This document shows positions 980 through 5,963 of a DNA stretch of 8,184 nucleotides, piece after piece; the stretch's first letter is position 1, and every line of letters begins with the position of its first letter. The notes beneath the pieces are model-generated. The model had not been told where the DNA came from and made no database searches. It saw only the letters and a list, made by a program, of their open reading frames with translations. The stretch comes from an uncultured Eubacteriales bacterium (GTDB lineage: Bacteria > Bacillota_A > Clostridia > Lachnospirales > Lachnospiraceae), in contig CADCPV010000397.1 in assembly GCA_902803345.1 (NCBI GenBank), positions 1 to 8,184 on the forward strand. Reading direction: 5' to 3'. The position numbers and the translations under genes were made by a program.

Positions 980-2494
980 TCAATAGCTTTTCACCTTGAT
1001 ATCACCGCTTGTCGTAGAGATGGAATAATTTCCTTCCGGGCCGTAAGCCGGGGAAACGGAAACCTTTCCGCTCGTGGTGCTGATGCTGATGACAGGGATC
1101 GTATGGAAGCACATTTCAATATCACCGCTTGTCGTCCGGACAGAGAAGCGGTCGATATCGTGATCAAAATTCGCATCTTCATACTTCACTTCGCCGCTTG
1201 TCGTGGCGATCGAAAAATCCCGGCTCTTCACATCCCGCATCGTCACATCTCCGCTGCCGGATTCTGCCGTGAACTTCTCTGCCGAAAGATCCCGGATTTC
1301 AATCTTTCCGCTTGAGGTACGGCAGGACAGATTCTCCGCAGAACCGTATCCAAGCCTTCCGCACTGGAGTTTAATGTCCCCGCTCGAGGTCCGGATCTCT
1401 CCCTTCTCAAGGTGAAATACTGCTTCCGATTTAATTTCTCCGCTGGAAGTATTCAGATTCAGCGTTCCTCTCAGCACCAGCTTTTCAGGCAGGATAATAT
1501 CTCCGCTTGAGGTTTCAATATCCAGTTTCTCTAATTCGGATTCTTTCCCCCATACCTCCTGCTGGCGGAACGGCAATCCGATCACAACATCTTCATCGCT
1601 GCCAAACAGACCGAATAAGGAGAACGAGCTGCCGATTTTCTTTTCAATCCAGAGACTTCCGTCATGATAATCGACTTTATAATGATTCTGTGCACCTTTC
1701 GAAAAAGTCACCGTAACATTTTTTGAATTCGAATCCTCAAAGCGCACATCTCCGGAAGAAGTACGGATTATCAGGCTTTCAACCGGATCTTCGTATGTGA
1801 CTTCCTTACTGTCTCCGTCAAAAAGGCTGAAGGGAAAGATGCTGGTCGTGAAATTGACGGTCCGTTTCACAATCGAAGCAGAAGCGATTACCCCGATCAC
1901 CGCAACTGCAGCGATCAGGATTATAGAAAGCTTTTTCCTGCGCGGCGACCTGGGCAGCTGTTTTTCTTCCGGGCGAGCTGTCTTCTGCTCCTCGATGTTC
2001 CGGATCGCGCGCTGAATCGCTTCCTCGCTGAGACCGGCTGCGGAAGTACCGTTTCCATCACTCTTTCCGGAAGCGGTTTCCTGCGTATTGTCTGCATCAT
2101 TTCCGTAATCCTTTTCGGAAGCCAGTCTTCCTTCCTGTCTGAGCTCAGTCTCCACGGTCTCTTCGATGATGTTTTTCTCAGAATTCCCGGCGGTTTCCTC
2201 CGGCTGTGCCGCAGGTTCCGGTGCCGGCTCTTCTGTTTTCTCTATTGCGTCTGCAGGCATGGCCGGAGTGTCTTCTTTGGCACTTTCCGATGCTTTCACA
2301 CCAAGCGCCGCCAGCATTTCGAGCGCATCCTGGTCCGGGTCGCCGATCGACTGCACCGCTTCTTCCTCGCTGAAGCCTTCCTCTATCCGGTCGTCGATCA
2401 TTTCCGAATAGTAGTCTGTTACCCGCCGCCGGTCCTGCGGCGAAAGGTCCCTGAGTCTGTCCGAAAGCTGACTTAAAAAATCAAATCTGTTCAT
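980..2494 (-). CDS. DUF1700-TM-DUF4097 membrane protein with ten TSSGD-type repeats
   Basis: 504 residues. Residues 1-63 form a helical DUF1700-like domain (NRFDFLSQLSDRLRDLSPQD, then a GFSEEEAVQSIGDP motif). Residues 64-180 are an acidic, low-complexity linker rich in Glu, Ala and Pro. PRSPRRKK (181-188) followed by a hydrophobic helix (about 189-208) implies N-in/C-out topology. Residues 235-504 are a DUF4097-type beta-repeat domain with ten copies of a T/S-T/S-S-G-D/E/K-I/V motif, centred near 247, 331, 351, 371, 395, 414, 433, 456, 475 and 497. Such repeats are expected to stack as a parallel beta-solenoid outside the membrane. The ATG overlaps the stop codon of the PadR gene by 4 nt (ATGA), so the two are probably translationally coupled and co-transcribed. 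PadR plus DUF1700/DUF4097 is a recurrent pairing in Bacillota, and the protein probably senses or responds to the cell envelope. The molecular function is not established. The stop is TGA at 982-980. Confidence 0.85.
   Translation of the reverse strand: MNRFDFLSQLSDRLRDLSPQDRRRVTDYYSEMIDDRIEEGFSEEEAVQSIGDPDQDALEMLAALGVKASESAKEDTPAMPADAIEKTEEPAPEPAAQPEETAGNSEKNIIEETVETELRQEGRLASEKDYGNDADNTQETASGKSDGNGTSAAGLSEEAIQRAIRNIEEQKTARPEEKQLPRSPRRKKLSIILIAAVAVIGVIASASIVKRTVNFTTSIFPFSLFDGDSKEVTYEDPVESLIIRTSSGDVRFEDSNSKNVTVTFSKGAQNHYKVDYHDGSLWIEKKIGSSFSLFGLFGSDEDVVIGLPFRQQEVWGKESELEKLDIETSSGDIILPEKLVLRGTLNLNTSSGEIKSEAVFHLEKGEIRTSSGDIKLQCGRLGYGSAENLSCRTSSGKIEIRDLSAEKFTAESGSGDVTMRDVKSRDFSIATTSGEVKYEDANFDHDIDRFSVRTTSGDIEMCFHTIPVISISTTSGKVSVSPAYGPEGNYSISTTSGDIKVKSY
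999..1204 (-). repeat. Near-identical DNA copies of the TTSGD/E repeat core
   Basis: The 17-nt string ATATCACCGCTTGTCGT occurs exactly at 999-1015 and 1119-1135, and a shorter variant (TCGCCGCTTGTCGT) lies at 1191-1204. They encode the last few T-T-S-G-D/E-I/V motifs of the DUF4097 domain. The upstream repeats (1240-1760) use more diverged codons, so the 3' end of the gene may have expanded or been homogenised more recently. Confidence 0.6.
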
Positions 2495-3012: not shown

Positions 3013-3099
3013 GCTGATGCTTTTGGCCTGCTCTTTTCGAAATGAGTCATCCAACTGCACGGCAGAACCGCAAAAACACATCCGATGGAGGAAACAAAT

Positions 3100-3476
3100 A
3101 TGCCGAGTCCGGAAAAAAAGAAAAACGAATCTCTTGAGAAAAACTGGCTGAACTATGCGCTGTTATGCCGATGGTCGGAAAACAGATGCTTGCTGCAATT
3201 ATGGCAAACCACTCCACTCAGATGTTCCGGAATCCGGCAACGGGAGAACTCGGCGTGGACGCTGTAATGTACAAAAACAACTACGACAAGTACATGAAAG
3301 ATCCCGCAATCGATCTGATGGCTGAGAAACTGCAGGATCCGGAAGAAAGATCAAAAATCTGCAACGATGCCGTTATCCCGACTACTGATAAAATTGATTC
3401 AGCGAACCTCCTGATGACCTATATGGACTGTAAGAAAGAAGCCGCCAAAAATGTTGCGCCTGTGATTGGATTATAA
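3100..3476 (+). pseudogene. Small unrecognised gene, apparently frameshifted
   Basis: A good start exists at ATG 3100 (GGAGG at 3087-3091, 8-nt spacing). That frame reads MPSPEKKKNESLEKNWLNYA and then becomes unconvincing (Cys/Arg/Trp-rich), ending at TGA 3267. The -1 frame opens after TGA 3135-3137 and reads a plausible soluble protein from about 3159: VMPMVGKQMLAAIMANHS, then an acidic helical segment with DPAIDLMAEKLQDPEER, ending ...KNVAPVIGL at TAA 3474-3476. The internal ATG at 3165 has no ribosome site. The simplest reading is one gene of about 125 residues that lost one base between 3138 and about 3165, either as a real pseudogene or as a sequencing error. Programmed -1 slippage is less likely. 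The dnaX-like A-AAA-AAG near 3113-3120 would run straight into the TGA at 3135, and the later G-AAA-AAC is a weak site. I do not recognise the family. It shows no membrane helix or signal peptide and lies 125 nt upstream of the CARF nuclease. Confidence 0.6.
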
Positions 3477-3601: not shown

Positions 3602-4774
3602 ATGAATATCCTGATTAAATTTTTGAGCATGGAACCGATTGAAAACCTTGTCACCGCCATGCACTGGCGCATTGACAAGATCATTTTCTTCGGGTATGAA
3701 GACTATCTCGCGCACCGAAAAAAAGACACGGAAAGTTTTCTCAAAAAATACTGCCGGGTCGGGCGGGTGGAATTTCATACGGTTTCCCGGACGAATTTAG
3801 ACAATATCCTGAAGAAAATCCGGGAGCAGGTGATTGCGGAACACGAATACGGGAATTCTGTATTCCTGGATCTGACAGGCGGAAAAGGCCAGGTTCTCGC
3901 TGCTTTCGGCATGGTGGAAAAAGAGCTTTCGCTACCGATGCACCTCTACTGGATCAGCGAAGACCGGCTGATTGAATACTGTCACGAGAAAGAAAAACGC
4001 CTGTCTTCCATTGTTCAGCCGCAGTCGGTCGAACTGGATCTGAACCGCTATATTGAGATGCGCGGCGGGGTGATCAACTACCGGATGCATAAGGAAATCA
4101 AGGAAATCGACGATGAAGAGACCGAAGAGATCGTCAATTCGATCTGGAGCCTGTTCCTGAAATACGAAGAGAGCTGGTCCGCAATTTCGGGCTTTCTGCA
4201 GCGCACCCTGCGGACGGAAAGCCTGCAGATTACGCTGGACAGCCACGATGTCCGCGACGAGCTGAAAAAGTCCCGCTCGCTTCCTCCGGTCCTCCTGGAG
4301 CAGTTCCTCACAGACGGGGAAAAACGGGGAATTTTCCTGGATCTCAGCCTTTCGCGCCGGGATATCAGCTTCCGCTTCCGCTCGTATACCGTCCGCAATA
4401 TCCTGGCAGACGCGGGGAGCATTCTGGAGCTGCATGTCTACCAGATTTTCCGCGCGCAGACCCCGAACTGCAAGGTCGGCGTACACCTGGACTGGGACGG
4501 CATCATTCACAACCGTTCCGGCAAAGACGTTGTCAATGAAATCGACGTCCTGGTGCTGCACGGCCTGATTCCGACCTTCATCTCCTGCAAGATCGGTACG
4601 GCAGACAAAAACGCACTGTACGAGCTTTCGGCTGTAGCAGCGCGTTTCGGCGGAAGATTTTCAAAAATGATGCTCGTTGCCGGGAAAGGAATGTCGGAAA
4701 CGGACCTGCTCCGGGCTGCCGAAATGGATATCCAGGTCATGAACCGGGATATGACGCTGCTGAATCCTGAATAA
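3602..4774 (+). CDS. Card1/Can2-like protein: CARF domain plus PD-(D/E)xK nuclease domain (DUF1887 family)
   Basis: 390 residues from ATG 3602, with a weak purine-rich ribosome site (AGAGAGAAG, 3588-3596). An upstream in-frame GTG (3506) would add 32 residues unlike the family and lies before the predicted transcript start. Residues 1-145 resemble a CARF Rossmann domain: strand MNILIKFLS, KIIFFGYE (26-33), and the ligand-loop motif FLDLTGGKGQVLAA (88-101), followed by HLYWISEDRLIEY. Residues about 150-260 are a linker/winged-helix-like region. Residues 270-390 form the nuclease domain, with E276 in SILELHVYQIF, E313-x-D315 in VNEIDVLVLHG, and ISCKIG with K330. In characterised relatives (Treponema Card1, Can2), cyclic tetra-adenylate from type III CRISPR binds CARF and switches on metal-dependent cleavage of single-stranded or nicking of double-stranded nucleic acid. 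The length is close to Card1 (about 370). No CRISPR array, cas10 or cyclase is seen here. Serine 328 occupies the acidic position of the usual E-x-K. Family assignment is firm, but activator and activity are inferred. Confidence 0.85.
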   Translation: MNILIKFLSMEPIENLVTAMHWRIDKIIFFGYEDYLAHRKKDTESFLKKYCRVGRVEFHTVSRTNLDNILKKIREQVIAEHEYGNSVFLDLTGGKGQVLAAFGMVEKELSLPMHLYWISEDRLIEYCHEKEKRLSSIVQPQSVELDLNRYIEMRGGVINYRMHKEIKEIDDEETEEIVNSIWSLFLKYEESWSAISGFLQRTLRTESLQITLDSHDVRDELKKSRSLPPVLLEQFLTDGEKRGIFLDLSLSRRDISFRFRSYTVRNILADAGSILELHVYQIFRAQTPNCKVGVHLDWDGIIHNRSGKDVVNEIDVLVLHGLIPTFISCKIGTADKNALYELSAVAARFGGRFSKMMLVAGKGMSETDLLRAAEMDIQVMNRDMTLLNPE

Positions 4775-4795: not shown

Positions 4796-4831
4796 AAGAG
4801 CCGCTGACTTCGGTCGCGGCTCTTGTTTTTT
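4796..4831 (+). terminator. Intrinsic terminator of the nuclease gene, UUCG loop
   Basis: AAGAGCCGC (4796-4804) pairs with GCGGCTCTT (4816-4824). An inner GAC/GTC extension with one bulged T closes a TTCG tetraloop (4809-4812), and a run of six T follows (4826-4831). On the minus strand the same hairpin is followed only by a TTCTGCATTAATT-like tract, so it may stop the convergent ABC operon weakly. The permease stop codon (4832-4830) overlaps the T-run. Confidence 0.9.
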
Positions 4832-5963
4832 ATCGCTTATCCTTATCAATAAACTCCAATGCAATCGTTGCAAGGATCACAAATCCCAGAGAAAAAGCGA
4901 TCATAACCATCCAGCATCGGATAACATTTCCGCGTGTATGCTCATAAGCGGCATTATAACTTGTAATCCGTGAGGCCTCGGTCACATATTCTTTTACGCG
5001 CTGTTCGCCGATCGCGTTCAGAATATCGCCGAGTTTGATATGCAGATCATATTCGGCTCCTTCGAACTGCTGCAGCATACCGGTCTCAAGAATGGTATCC
5101 GCCACCTGCTCCATCGTCAGCCCGTCCGGTGTCGATATTTCGCTGAGCTGACTTCGCACCGCGTCATTCTGAAGCAAAACGACCACATCATCCACCGTCA
5201 GGGTGTGATCGATTTCCGTGTTTCTCATATTGCTCAGTGTATTCCACCCTGATACCGCGGGAAGACTGTTGAAATCCGCCAGCGCAGCAATGCTCCGGAG
5301 TCCGTAACGGGAAAGCGTCGCTCCGGAAACGGACAGCGTCCACTGCGGAAGGGCCACCATGCCGCCTGAGAAGATCAGCTGGAACACCAGAAGAAGCGGC
5401 ATGACCGTCATGGCAGCCGTCGTCGTCCTGACAAAACTCGACACGAGAAGGCCCATCATATCCGAAGCAAAGGTGATCAGAAAAGCCGAAATGCCGATGT
5501 CGAGATAAATCCATCTGGTAATAAAGCCTTCTTTCGGGAATGGAACGCCGGCTCTTACACATACGATCATCAGCAGAATCGTCTGCGCAAGGCAGAGGAG
5601 GGCCTGATAAATCACATGGGCGCAGACATACGAGGAAATATGCATTCCGGAACGGTGTTCCCGCTTGACGATCCCGCGTTCCCGGCAGACCACCTGGATC
5701 GAGTTAAAGCAGCCGTTCCATACACAGGCGAGCGTGATGGCAAAGGAGCCCACGAGCGTCCCTTCCATTGTAACAAACATATTGGATCTGGTGACCATGG
5801 CGACGATCACACCGATCGCCGCTGCCATCGGCAGCACTTTCCAGTCGTTCTGGTATATAAACATCCGCAAAAACTTTACAAGATAAATCCGGATCTGGAA
5901 GAGTCTTCCGCGGTGGCGTCCGATCCCGTTCACTTCAACAGACTGTTCGATTTGTTCAGGCAT
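4830..5963 (-). CDS. ABC-2 / ABCG-like transporter permease
   Basis: 377 residues from ATG 5963, preceded by GGAGGT (5974-5969) at 5-nt spacing. An in-frame ATG at 5978 lies upstream of that site and is rejected. Predicted membrane helices lie near residues 43-59, 68-90, 112-138, 151-176, 184-206 and 350-372. The segment WNGCFNSIQVVCRERGIVKREHRSG (82-106) is the ABCG-type signature region, in which an F-N-x-x-x-x-x-x-ER-x-I-x-x-RE pattern forms the cytosolic helix contacting the ATPase. Between helices 5 and 6 lies a large extracytoplasmic domain (about 207-348) with many acidic residues, larger than in short ABC-2 exporters and resembling the ABCG external loop. The start overlaps the ATPase stop by 8 nt, so the two are coupled and form one transporter, probably an exporter. 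The substrate is unknown. The gene ends inside the convergent terminator. Confidence 0.85.
   Translation of the reverse strand: MPEQIEQSVEVNGIGRHRGRLFQIRIYLVKFLRMFIYQNDWKVLPMAAAIGVIVAMVTRSNMFVTMEGTLVGSFAITLACVWNGCFNSIQVVCRERGIVKREHRSGMHISSYVCAHVIYQALLCLAQTILLMIVCVRAGVPFPKEGFITRWIYLDIGISAFLITFASDMMGLLVSSFVRTTTAAMTVMPLLLVFQLIFSGGMVALPQWTLSVSGATLSRYGLRSIAALADFNSLPAVSGWNTLSNMRNTEIDHTLTVDDVVVLLQNDAVRSQLSEISTPDGLTMEQVADTILETGMLQQFEGAEYDLHIKLGDILNAIGEQRVKEYVTEASRITSYNAAYEHTRGNVIRCWMVMIAFSLGFVILATIALEFIDKDKR

What the first reader, a model, noticed from the sequence alone, without database searches (positions are those of the whole stretch)
3602..4774. Stand-alone CARF nuclease with no CRISPR partner in view
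The protein has the CARF plus PD-(D/E)xK layout of Card1/Can2, effectors known to be switched on by cyclic oligoadenylate from type III CRISPR. Yet its promoter, terminator and neighbours (a broken small gene, an ABC exporter, a PadR operon) make it a single-gene unit with no cas gene or array within about 3.4 kb on either side. It may serve a distant type III system, respond to another nucleotide signal, or act as an orphan stress or defence nuclease.
Basis: partly seen in the sequence, partly recalled or inferred. Interest (0 to 1): 0.7.

Follow-up and report, generated by a model that had tools for sequence, protein, structure and literature searches.

The report
Stand-alone CARF nuclease, non-cA4 pocket
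A gut-bacterial enzyme built like the alarm-triggered nucleases of CRISPR belongs to a branch that mostly lives without CRISPR and has lost the usual alarm-binding residue; a few CRISPR-linked cousins sit beside a different alarm system, SAM-AMP, which hints that such sensors may read other signals.

The parts
3602..4774 (+). CARF--PD-(D/E)xK nuclease gene, 390 residues, ATG start (homologues begin at the same Met)
3602..3991 (+). CARF domain, about residues 1-130
   Evidence: structural matches of residues 1-130 to CARF domains
3869..3889 (+). pocket motif D90-L-T92-G-G-K95-G96 (cA4-type relatives: NxT[GC]GTKxM)
4352..4771 (+). PD-(D/E)xK nuclease domain, about residues 251-390
   Evidence: PF09002 at residues 272-383
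4427..4429 (+). E276, invariant acidic residue (Cdn1 E274)
   Evidence: 95 of 95 rows; Cdn1 numbering
4535..4546 (+). N312-E313-I-D315 (Can2 E276/D278; Cdn1 E308/D310)
   Evidence: E313 and D315 in 95 of 95 rows
4583..4591 (+). S328-C-K330, ExK with Glu replaced by Ser
   Evidence: 95 of 95 rows
4622..4624 (+). E341, Glu in 89 of 95 rows; Lys in Can2 and VC1899
4796..4832 (+). terminator-like hairpin (UUCG loop) and T-run after the gene
   Evidence: not listed by the consensus scan

Best explanation
The gene encodes a stand-alone, probably dimeric, ligand-gated nuclease of Card1/Can2 build: a small nucleotide-like ligand binds the CARF dimer, the PD-(D/E)xK domains turn and close, and nucleic acid is nicked or cut, slowing the cell or an invader. 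It belongs to a chromosomal Bacillota branch that mostly does without type III CRISPR and whose pocket has lost the cA4 contacts, so its ligand is probably not cA4 from Cas10. Shown by computation: family, fold, conserved catalytic residues, loss of the cA4 signature, purifying selection, no association with type III. Inferred: dimer, gating, nuclease activity, defence or stress role. Unknown: the ligand and its synthase.
For: Family and fold. Low dN/dS: 0.13-0.18 for the window against L001-L004, 0.02-0.18 whole-gene in the 12 of 16 pairs with finite values. RAMPs in 9 of 80 relatives' genomes and in 2 of 29 carriers among 299 Lachnospiraceae, Fisher p 0.39. Lys99 place basic in 0 of 95 rows, D/E at residue 90 in 93 of 95, against 10 of 10 lysine-bearing relatives with RAMPs on the same contig. 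Catalytic residues E276, E313, D315, S328, K330 in 95 of 95 rows.
Against: No biochemistry. Window genome not held, completeness of relatives' genomes not given. VC1899, the nearest solved orphan, showed only weak RNase activity not regulated by cA4. The ExK Glu, essential in Cdn1 as E323, is Ser here. Pocket and type III do not match perfectly: the Negativicutes trio and G341 lack the lysine yet lie near type III genes; G536 (Thr) is type III-linked; G726 (Arg) has no RAMPs. The SxK and orphan state are not unique to this branch.
Confidence: 0.62

Rival explanations
1. SAM-AMP-like sensor. The branch's pocket binds SAM-AMP or a related adenosyl compound; stand-alone members answer an endogenous or phage-provoked SAM derivative, and one lineage was drafted as a second effector into SAM-AMP-type III-B operons.
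For: The three Negativicutes members lie in Cmr operons of genomes with CorA plus a DEDDh protein (G045, G047) or plus a SAM-AMP lyase (G052). CorA in 4 of 189 genomes, this CARF at E below 1e-80 in exactly 3 of those 4 (3.6e-6, kinship ignored). G054 also has Cmr, CorA and DEDDh, elsewhere. Their four Cas10s have Asp where four cOA-side Cas10s have Asn, the change described for SAM-AMP synthases. Acidic pocket positions.
Against: One clade; the pocket change predates the recruitment on the tree. The window clade has K95-G96, unlike the trio. CorA alone may be the SAM-AMP effector. No known SAM-AMP synthase in most carriers (no RAMPs in 71 of 80).
Confidence: 0.2
2. Ordinary cOA effector acting in trans for a type III locus elsewhere in the genome or gained by transfer.
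For: Fold of Card1/Can2; G020 carries RAMPs on another contig and Cas10 or RAMPs lie outside the fetched CARF stretch in G029, G051-type cases G054, G060, G074, G077.
Against: 71 of 80 genomes without RAMPs; no association in 299 genomes; cA4 signature lost.
Confidence: 0.08
3. Decaying CRISPR effector 'cast adrift', as proposed for VC1899.
For: Best structural match is VC1899, described so in PMC7969007.
Against: Low dN/dS in CARF and nuclease parts and invariant catalytic residues over 95 rows.
Confidence: 0.06
4. Effector of a CBASS-like or other cyclase system.
For: CARF domains are nucleotide sensors; in some distant members the gene lies near gdpP, a c-di-AMP phosphodiesterase gene.
Against: SMODS in 0 of 50 carriers' genomes; mCpol over cut-off in 1 of 50, on a Cas10. 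Other cyclase families were not searched.
Confidence: 0.04

Closest known systems
VC1899 of Vibrio cholerae (PDB 1XMX), orphan DUF1887 protein
   Different: 17% identity over the structural alignment; VC1899 has ECK and Lys at the 341 place, the window SCK and Glu; VC1899 keeps Arg at the Lys99 place, the window has Gly
Can2 / Card1 / Cdn1 (cA4- or cA6-activated type III effectors)
   Different: cA4 residues (Can2 S19, T42, K99, Y118) read S9, Y32, G96, L115; ExK Glu is Ser; no cas genes beside the window gene
Lysine-bearing DUF1887 members of type III loci in Bacillota (for example L146, L149, L150, L152)
   Same: PF09002 nuclease with the same S-x-K and E341
   Different: NxT[GC]GTKxM signature and RAMPs on the same contig in 10 of 10 genomes
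SAM-AMP type III-B systems (CorA with NrN, DEDD or lyase)
   Same: Sister proteins of the branch lie in such genomes, two directly beside corA
   Different: The window gene has no such partner in view; the papers seen describe CorA, not a CARF protein, as the SAM-AMP receptor

Membership tests
CARF4 / DUF1887 (PF09002) CARF nucleases | profile match to the family | tested here: met
   PDLC01880 E 8.4e-28; PF09002 27.7 bits over cut-off 26.4
CARF4 / DUF1887 (PF09002) CARF nucleases | CARF + PD-(D/E)xK two-domain fold | tested here: met
Can2/Card1 cA4-activated effectors | cA4-contacting residues (Can2 S19, T42, K99, Y118; Cdn1 T9, Q11, T37, K104, Y124) | tested here: not met
   window S9, E11, Y32, G96, L115; 0 of 95 rows basic at the Lys99 place
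Can2/Card1 cA4-activated effectors | catalytic E, E, D, E, K of Cdn1 (E274, E308, D310, E323, K325) | tested here: inconclusive
   four of five kept; E323 place is Ser, as in type III-linked relatives
Can2/Card1 cA4-activated effectors | encoded with a type III system | tested here: not met
   no cas gene in the window; no RAMPs in G001-G004; window genome itself not held
Can2/Card1 cA4-activated effectors | cA4-activated nuclease activity | not testable with these tools
   needs biochemistry
SAM-AMP signalling component | located in a CorA/DEDD/lyase Cmr locus | tested here: not met
   for the window gene; met for sisters L046 and L048 in one operon, and for L049 with CorA and lyase on another contig
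SAM-AMP signalling component | binds SAM-AMP | not testable with these tools
   needs biochemistry
CBASS or mCpol effector | SMODS or mCpol synthase in the genome | tested here: inconclusive
   SMODS 0 of 50, mCpol over cut-off 1 of 50 (on a Cas10) in relatives' genomes; window genome not held

The most novel reading that the evidence does not exclude
This CARF branch is a sensor class that does not read cyclic oligoadenylates. Its changed pocket (D/E for N at residue 90, no Lys99, often acidic at 95 or 96) reads SAM-AMP or a SAM-like nucleotide. Stand-alone members are a CRISPR-independent nuclease switch in gut Firmicutes, and one lineage was drafted back into SAM-AMP-making III-B operons beside corA, which would make it the first CARF protein tied to SAM-AMP.
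Probability: 0.2. Interest if true: 0.85.

Novelty: new variant of a known kind. Interest (0 to 1): 0.58.

Why it matters
CARF domains are generally treated as receptors of cyclic oligoadenylates in type III CRISPR. A selected, mostly CRISPR-free CARF nuclease branch with a changed pocket, and sisters inside SAM-AMP systems, makes two open questions testable: what orphan CARF proteins such as VC1899 sense, and whether SAM-AMP has receptors other than CorA.

Tried and rejected
Rejected: SxK with E341 as a mark of the orphans. Seven of 7 type III-linked comparison rows also have S328 and E341, and 6 of 95 branch rows lack E341. Limited: 'loss of the lysine = orphan', because of the Negativicutes trio and G341 (no lysine, near type III genes), G536 (Thr, type III-linked) and G726 (Arg, no RAMPs). 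Weak PF22335 matches were not counted as Cas10, since the family also rings in E. coli; RAMPs (PF03787) were used.

Led nowhere: plasmids and phages (no match), viral contigs (no relative), NCBIfam, PDB by single sequence (weak), Pfam and PDB for the DEDDh protein (only weak or no matches) before its motif alignment and fold. No gene-family neighbour of defence type recurs beside the gene in the clusters looked at, but the neighbours were not scanned against a defence library.

Limits: the trees are quick ones without bootstrap; the split used as root has 71% support. In one search, 13 rows were left out (duplicates, fragments, odd frames); a further 13 (long branches, near-duplicates, G341's row L132 among them) and 12 comparison rows were added. 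The patterns contain SCK, so its 80 loci are biased towards SCK and are the best 80 of 240. The protein list shows 120 of 706. The motif counts were partly misplaced by the script; one search recounts them (D/E at residue 90 in 93 of 95 and 0 of 95 basic at 96; D/E at 95 or 96 in 82 as printed, 83 with row L051 read by eye).

Papers: PMC12825302 outline, sections 21-23 and passages; PMC7969007, PMC10600005, PMC11229360, PMC12255297, PMC12669027, PMC11346440 passages only; others as search listings. That no CARF-SAM-AMP link is in print rests on the searches and those passages, in an open-licence library. The 2020 CARF classification paper (recalled) is not held.

Full report

A WIDE, SELECTED BRANCH. 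The protein search gave 706 homologues at E 1e-3 or better, 120 listed. In genome contigs 240 stretches were confirmed and the best 80 kept, mostly Lachnospiraceae and other Clostridia by record title. The closest kin (L001-L004, 71-75% identity) are uncultured Lachnospiraceae or Clostridiales. In L001-L003 a gene clustering with the window's CxxCxxCC gene overlaps or abuts the 3' end of the CARF gene on the other strand (Pfam confirmed for L001 and L003). Whole-gene dN/dS of the window against these four is 0.13-0.18 (dS above 1, so approximate). Over 16 pairs the 12 finite values are 0.02-0.18, and four pairs have saturated dS; the linker part (residues 131-250) reaches 0.32. No match on plasmids or phages and no relative among viral contigs.

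NO TYPE III PARTNER. RAMPs (PF03787) were found in 4 of 50 and 5 of 30 relatives' genomes, 9 of 80, and in none of G001-G005. The Cas10 stretch overlaps the fetched CARF locus in 3 of these 9 (L046, L048, L049), the three Negativicutes. In samples of 299 Lachnospiraceae genomes with the same handles, 29 carry a member at E 1e-3 or better (distant and partial ones included) and 40 carry RAMPs; 2 carry both (G020 on different contigs, G341 on one contig), Fisher p 0.39. Completeness of these genomes is not given. SMODS was in 0 of 50 genomes; mCpol in 2 of 50, one over cut-off, at the place of a Cas10.

THE POCKET CHANGED. In Can2, Ser19, Thr42, Lys99 and Tyr118 hold cA4, conserved with Can1 (PMC7969007). 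In Cdn1, T9, Q11, T37, K104 and Y124 are stated to be conserved in all clades (PMC12825302). By alignment the window has S9, E11, Y32, G96 and L115. Over 95 branch rows the Lys99 place is basic in none, residue 90 is D or E in 93 (Asn in the NxTGGTKxM form), and D/E stands at 95 or 96 in 83 (with L051 read by eye). Residues 11 and 14 are D/E in 77 and 85 rows. The window clade differs in one respect: it has K95-G96; K or R at 95 occurs in 10 of 95 rows.

CONTROL. In 398 genomes of the phylum, 20 have a PF09002 match. Ten have the lysine (G501, G516, G519, G538, G543, G631, G663, G666, G668, G689; in G689 the gene is in pieces), and all ten have RAMPs on the same contig, nine within about 4 kb and G631 at about 18 kb. 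One has Thr there and RAMPs (G536). Four lack the lysine and RAMPs (G504, G558, G583, G654). One has Arg and no RAMPs (G726). Two are the Negativicutes G045 and G047. The last two are a long fusion frame (G335, no RAMPs) and a broken copy (G621, RAMPs not tested). Kinship was not corrected for.

THE NUCLEASE. E276, E313, D315, S328 and K330 stand in 95 of 95 rows, E341 in 89. In Cdn1, E308A, D310A and E323A abolish activity; the E323 place is Ser here. Seven of 7 type III-linked comparison rows also have Ser there and Glu at 341, so this is a common variant, probably active. VC1899 and Can2 have Glu at that place and Lys at the 341 place.

THE TELLING EXCEPTION. Rooted on seven type III-linked relatives (six with the lysine), the Negativicutes trio nests inside the stand-alone branch (clades of 53 and 78 rows, 98% and 99%), and type III linkage changes twice on the tree (root split 71% only). 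In Anaerovibrio JC8 and Schwartzia succinivorans the gene is followed after 11 and 15 bases by corA (PADLOC CorA E 9.6e-76 and 2.3e-79), then by a cmr-like block with cas10, a DEDDh-type gene and a cas6-like gene (names other than CorA, Cas10 and RAMP matches are by eye). The DEDDh family keeps D7, E9, H151 and D156 in 20 of 20 rows and D91 in 90% or more and folds like oligoribonuclease and REXO2. In the third genome (G052) the CARF gene ends a cmr-like block, and corA followed by a SAM-AMP lyase relative (PDB 9gad E 2.3e-14) lies near the end of another contig.

In 189 genomes of that family corA is in 4 and this CARF, at E below 1e-80, in exactly 3 of those 4 (3.6e-6 by chance if genomes were independent). 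Nine further genomes have weaker matches, at least one of them broken and most of them in long frames. G880 has corA without this CARF. A fourth branch carrier, G054 (Oscillospiraceae), has Cmr, CorA and DEDDh elsewhere. In 12 other genomes with a CARF protein on a type III contig, none of CorA, DEDDh or lyase was found in the stretches fetched (L175-L187), nor in those of five further branch genomes (G020, G029, G060, G074, G077).

The Cas10s of the four SAM-type genomes have Asp at the place where four Cas10s from the comparison loci have Asn. PMC10600005 reports such an Asp (D70, at the place of Pyrococcus N300) as a mark of SAM-AMP synthases; the B. fragilis sequence itself was not aligned here. 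CorA with NrN, DEDD or lyase is given there and in PMC11229360 as the SAM-AMP set.

READING. The window gene most likely encodes a ligand-gated stand-alone nuclease that does not read cA4. The sisters make SAM-AMP, or something like it, the best named candidate, weakened for the window clade by Lys95 and by the lack of a known synthase. VC1899, called 'cast adrift', is the precedent for an orphan; low dN/dS argues against decay here.

Noticed in passing
L054-L078, for example L073:4172-13203: Distant members (27-30% identity to the window) sit in a shared chromosomal block: DnaB in 11, ribosomal protein L9 in 10 and a GdpP-like DHH protein in 9 of the 80 loci (clusters; Pfam on L073). It looks vertically inherited, and gdpP hints at c-di-AMP as a ligand to test.
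   Followed up: partly
G504, G558, G583, G654 (L147, L144, L151, L142): A second stand-alone lineage with a different pocket motif (LSNG[NH]PVAA) and no RAMPs in 4 of 4 genomes.
   Followed up: partly
G809, G821, G822, G839, G860, G862 (L166, L168-L170, L172, L173): Matches to the nuclease part of the profile inside long frames (876-1397 aa) in Selenomonadaceae, some with ECK: possible multi-domain relatives of the nuclease.
   Followed up: no
L195:8403-10004 (G880): A corA gene without cmr genes or CARF on its 13.3 kb contig.
   Followed up: partly
window 3085-3476: Two overlapping small frames upstream of the gene, perhaps one broken gene; no Pfam match above cut-off. Left as pieces.
   Followed up: no
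window 980-2494: DUF4097 'toastrack' protein beside PadR; its repeated coding motif gives the direct repeats at 995-1218.
   Followed up: no
L175 (G341): A distant member without the lysine lies about 6 kb from RAMPs and without CorA, DEDDh or lyase in 16 kb: an exception to both rules.
   Followed up: partly
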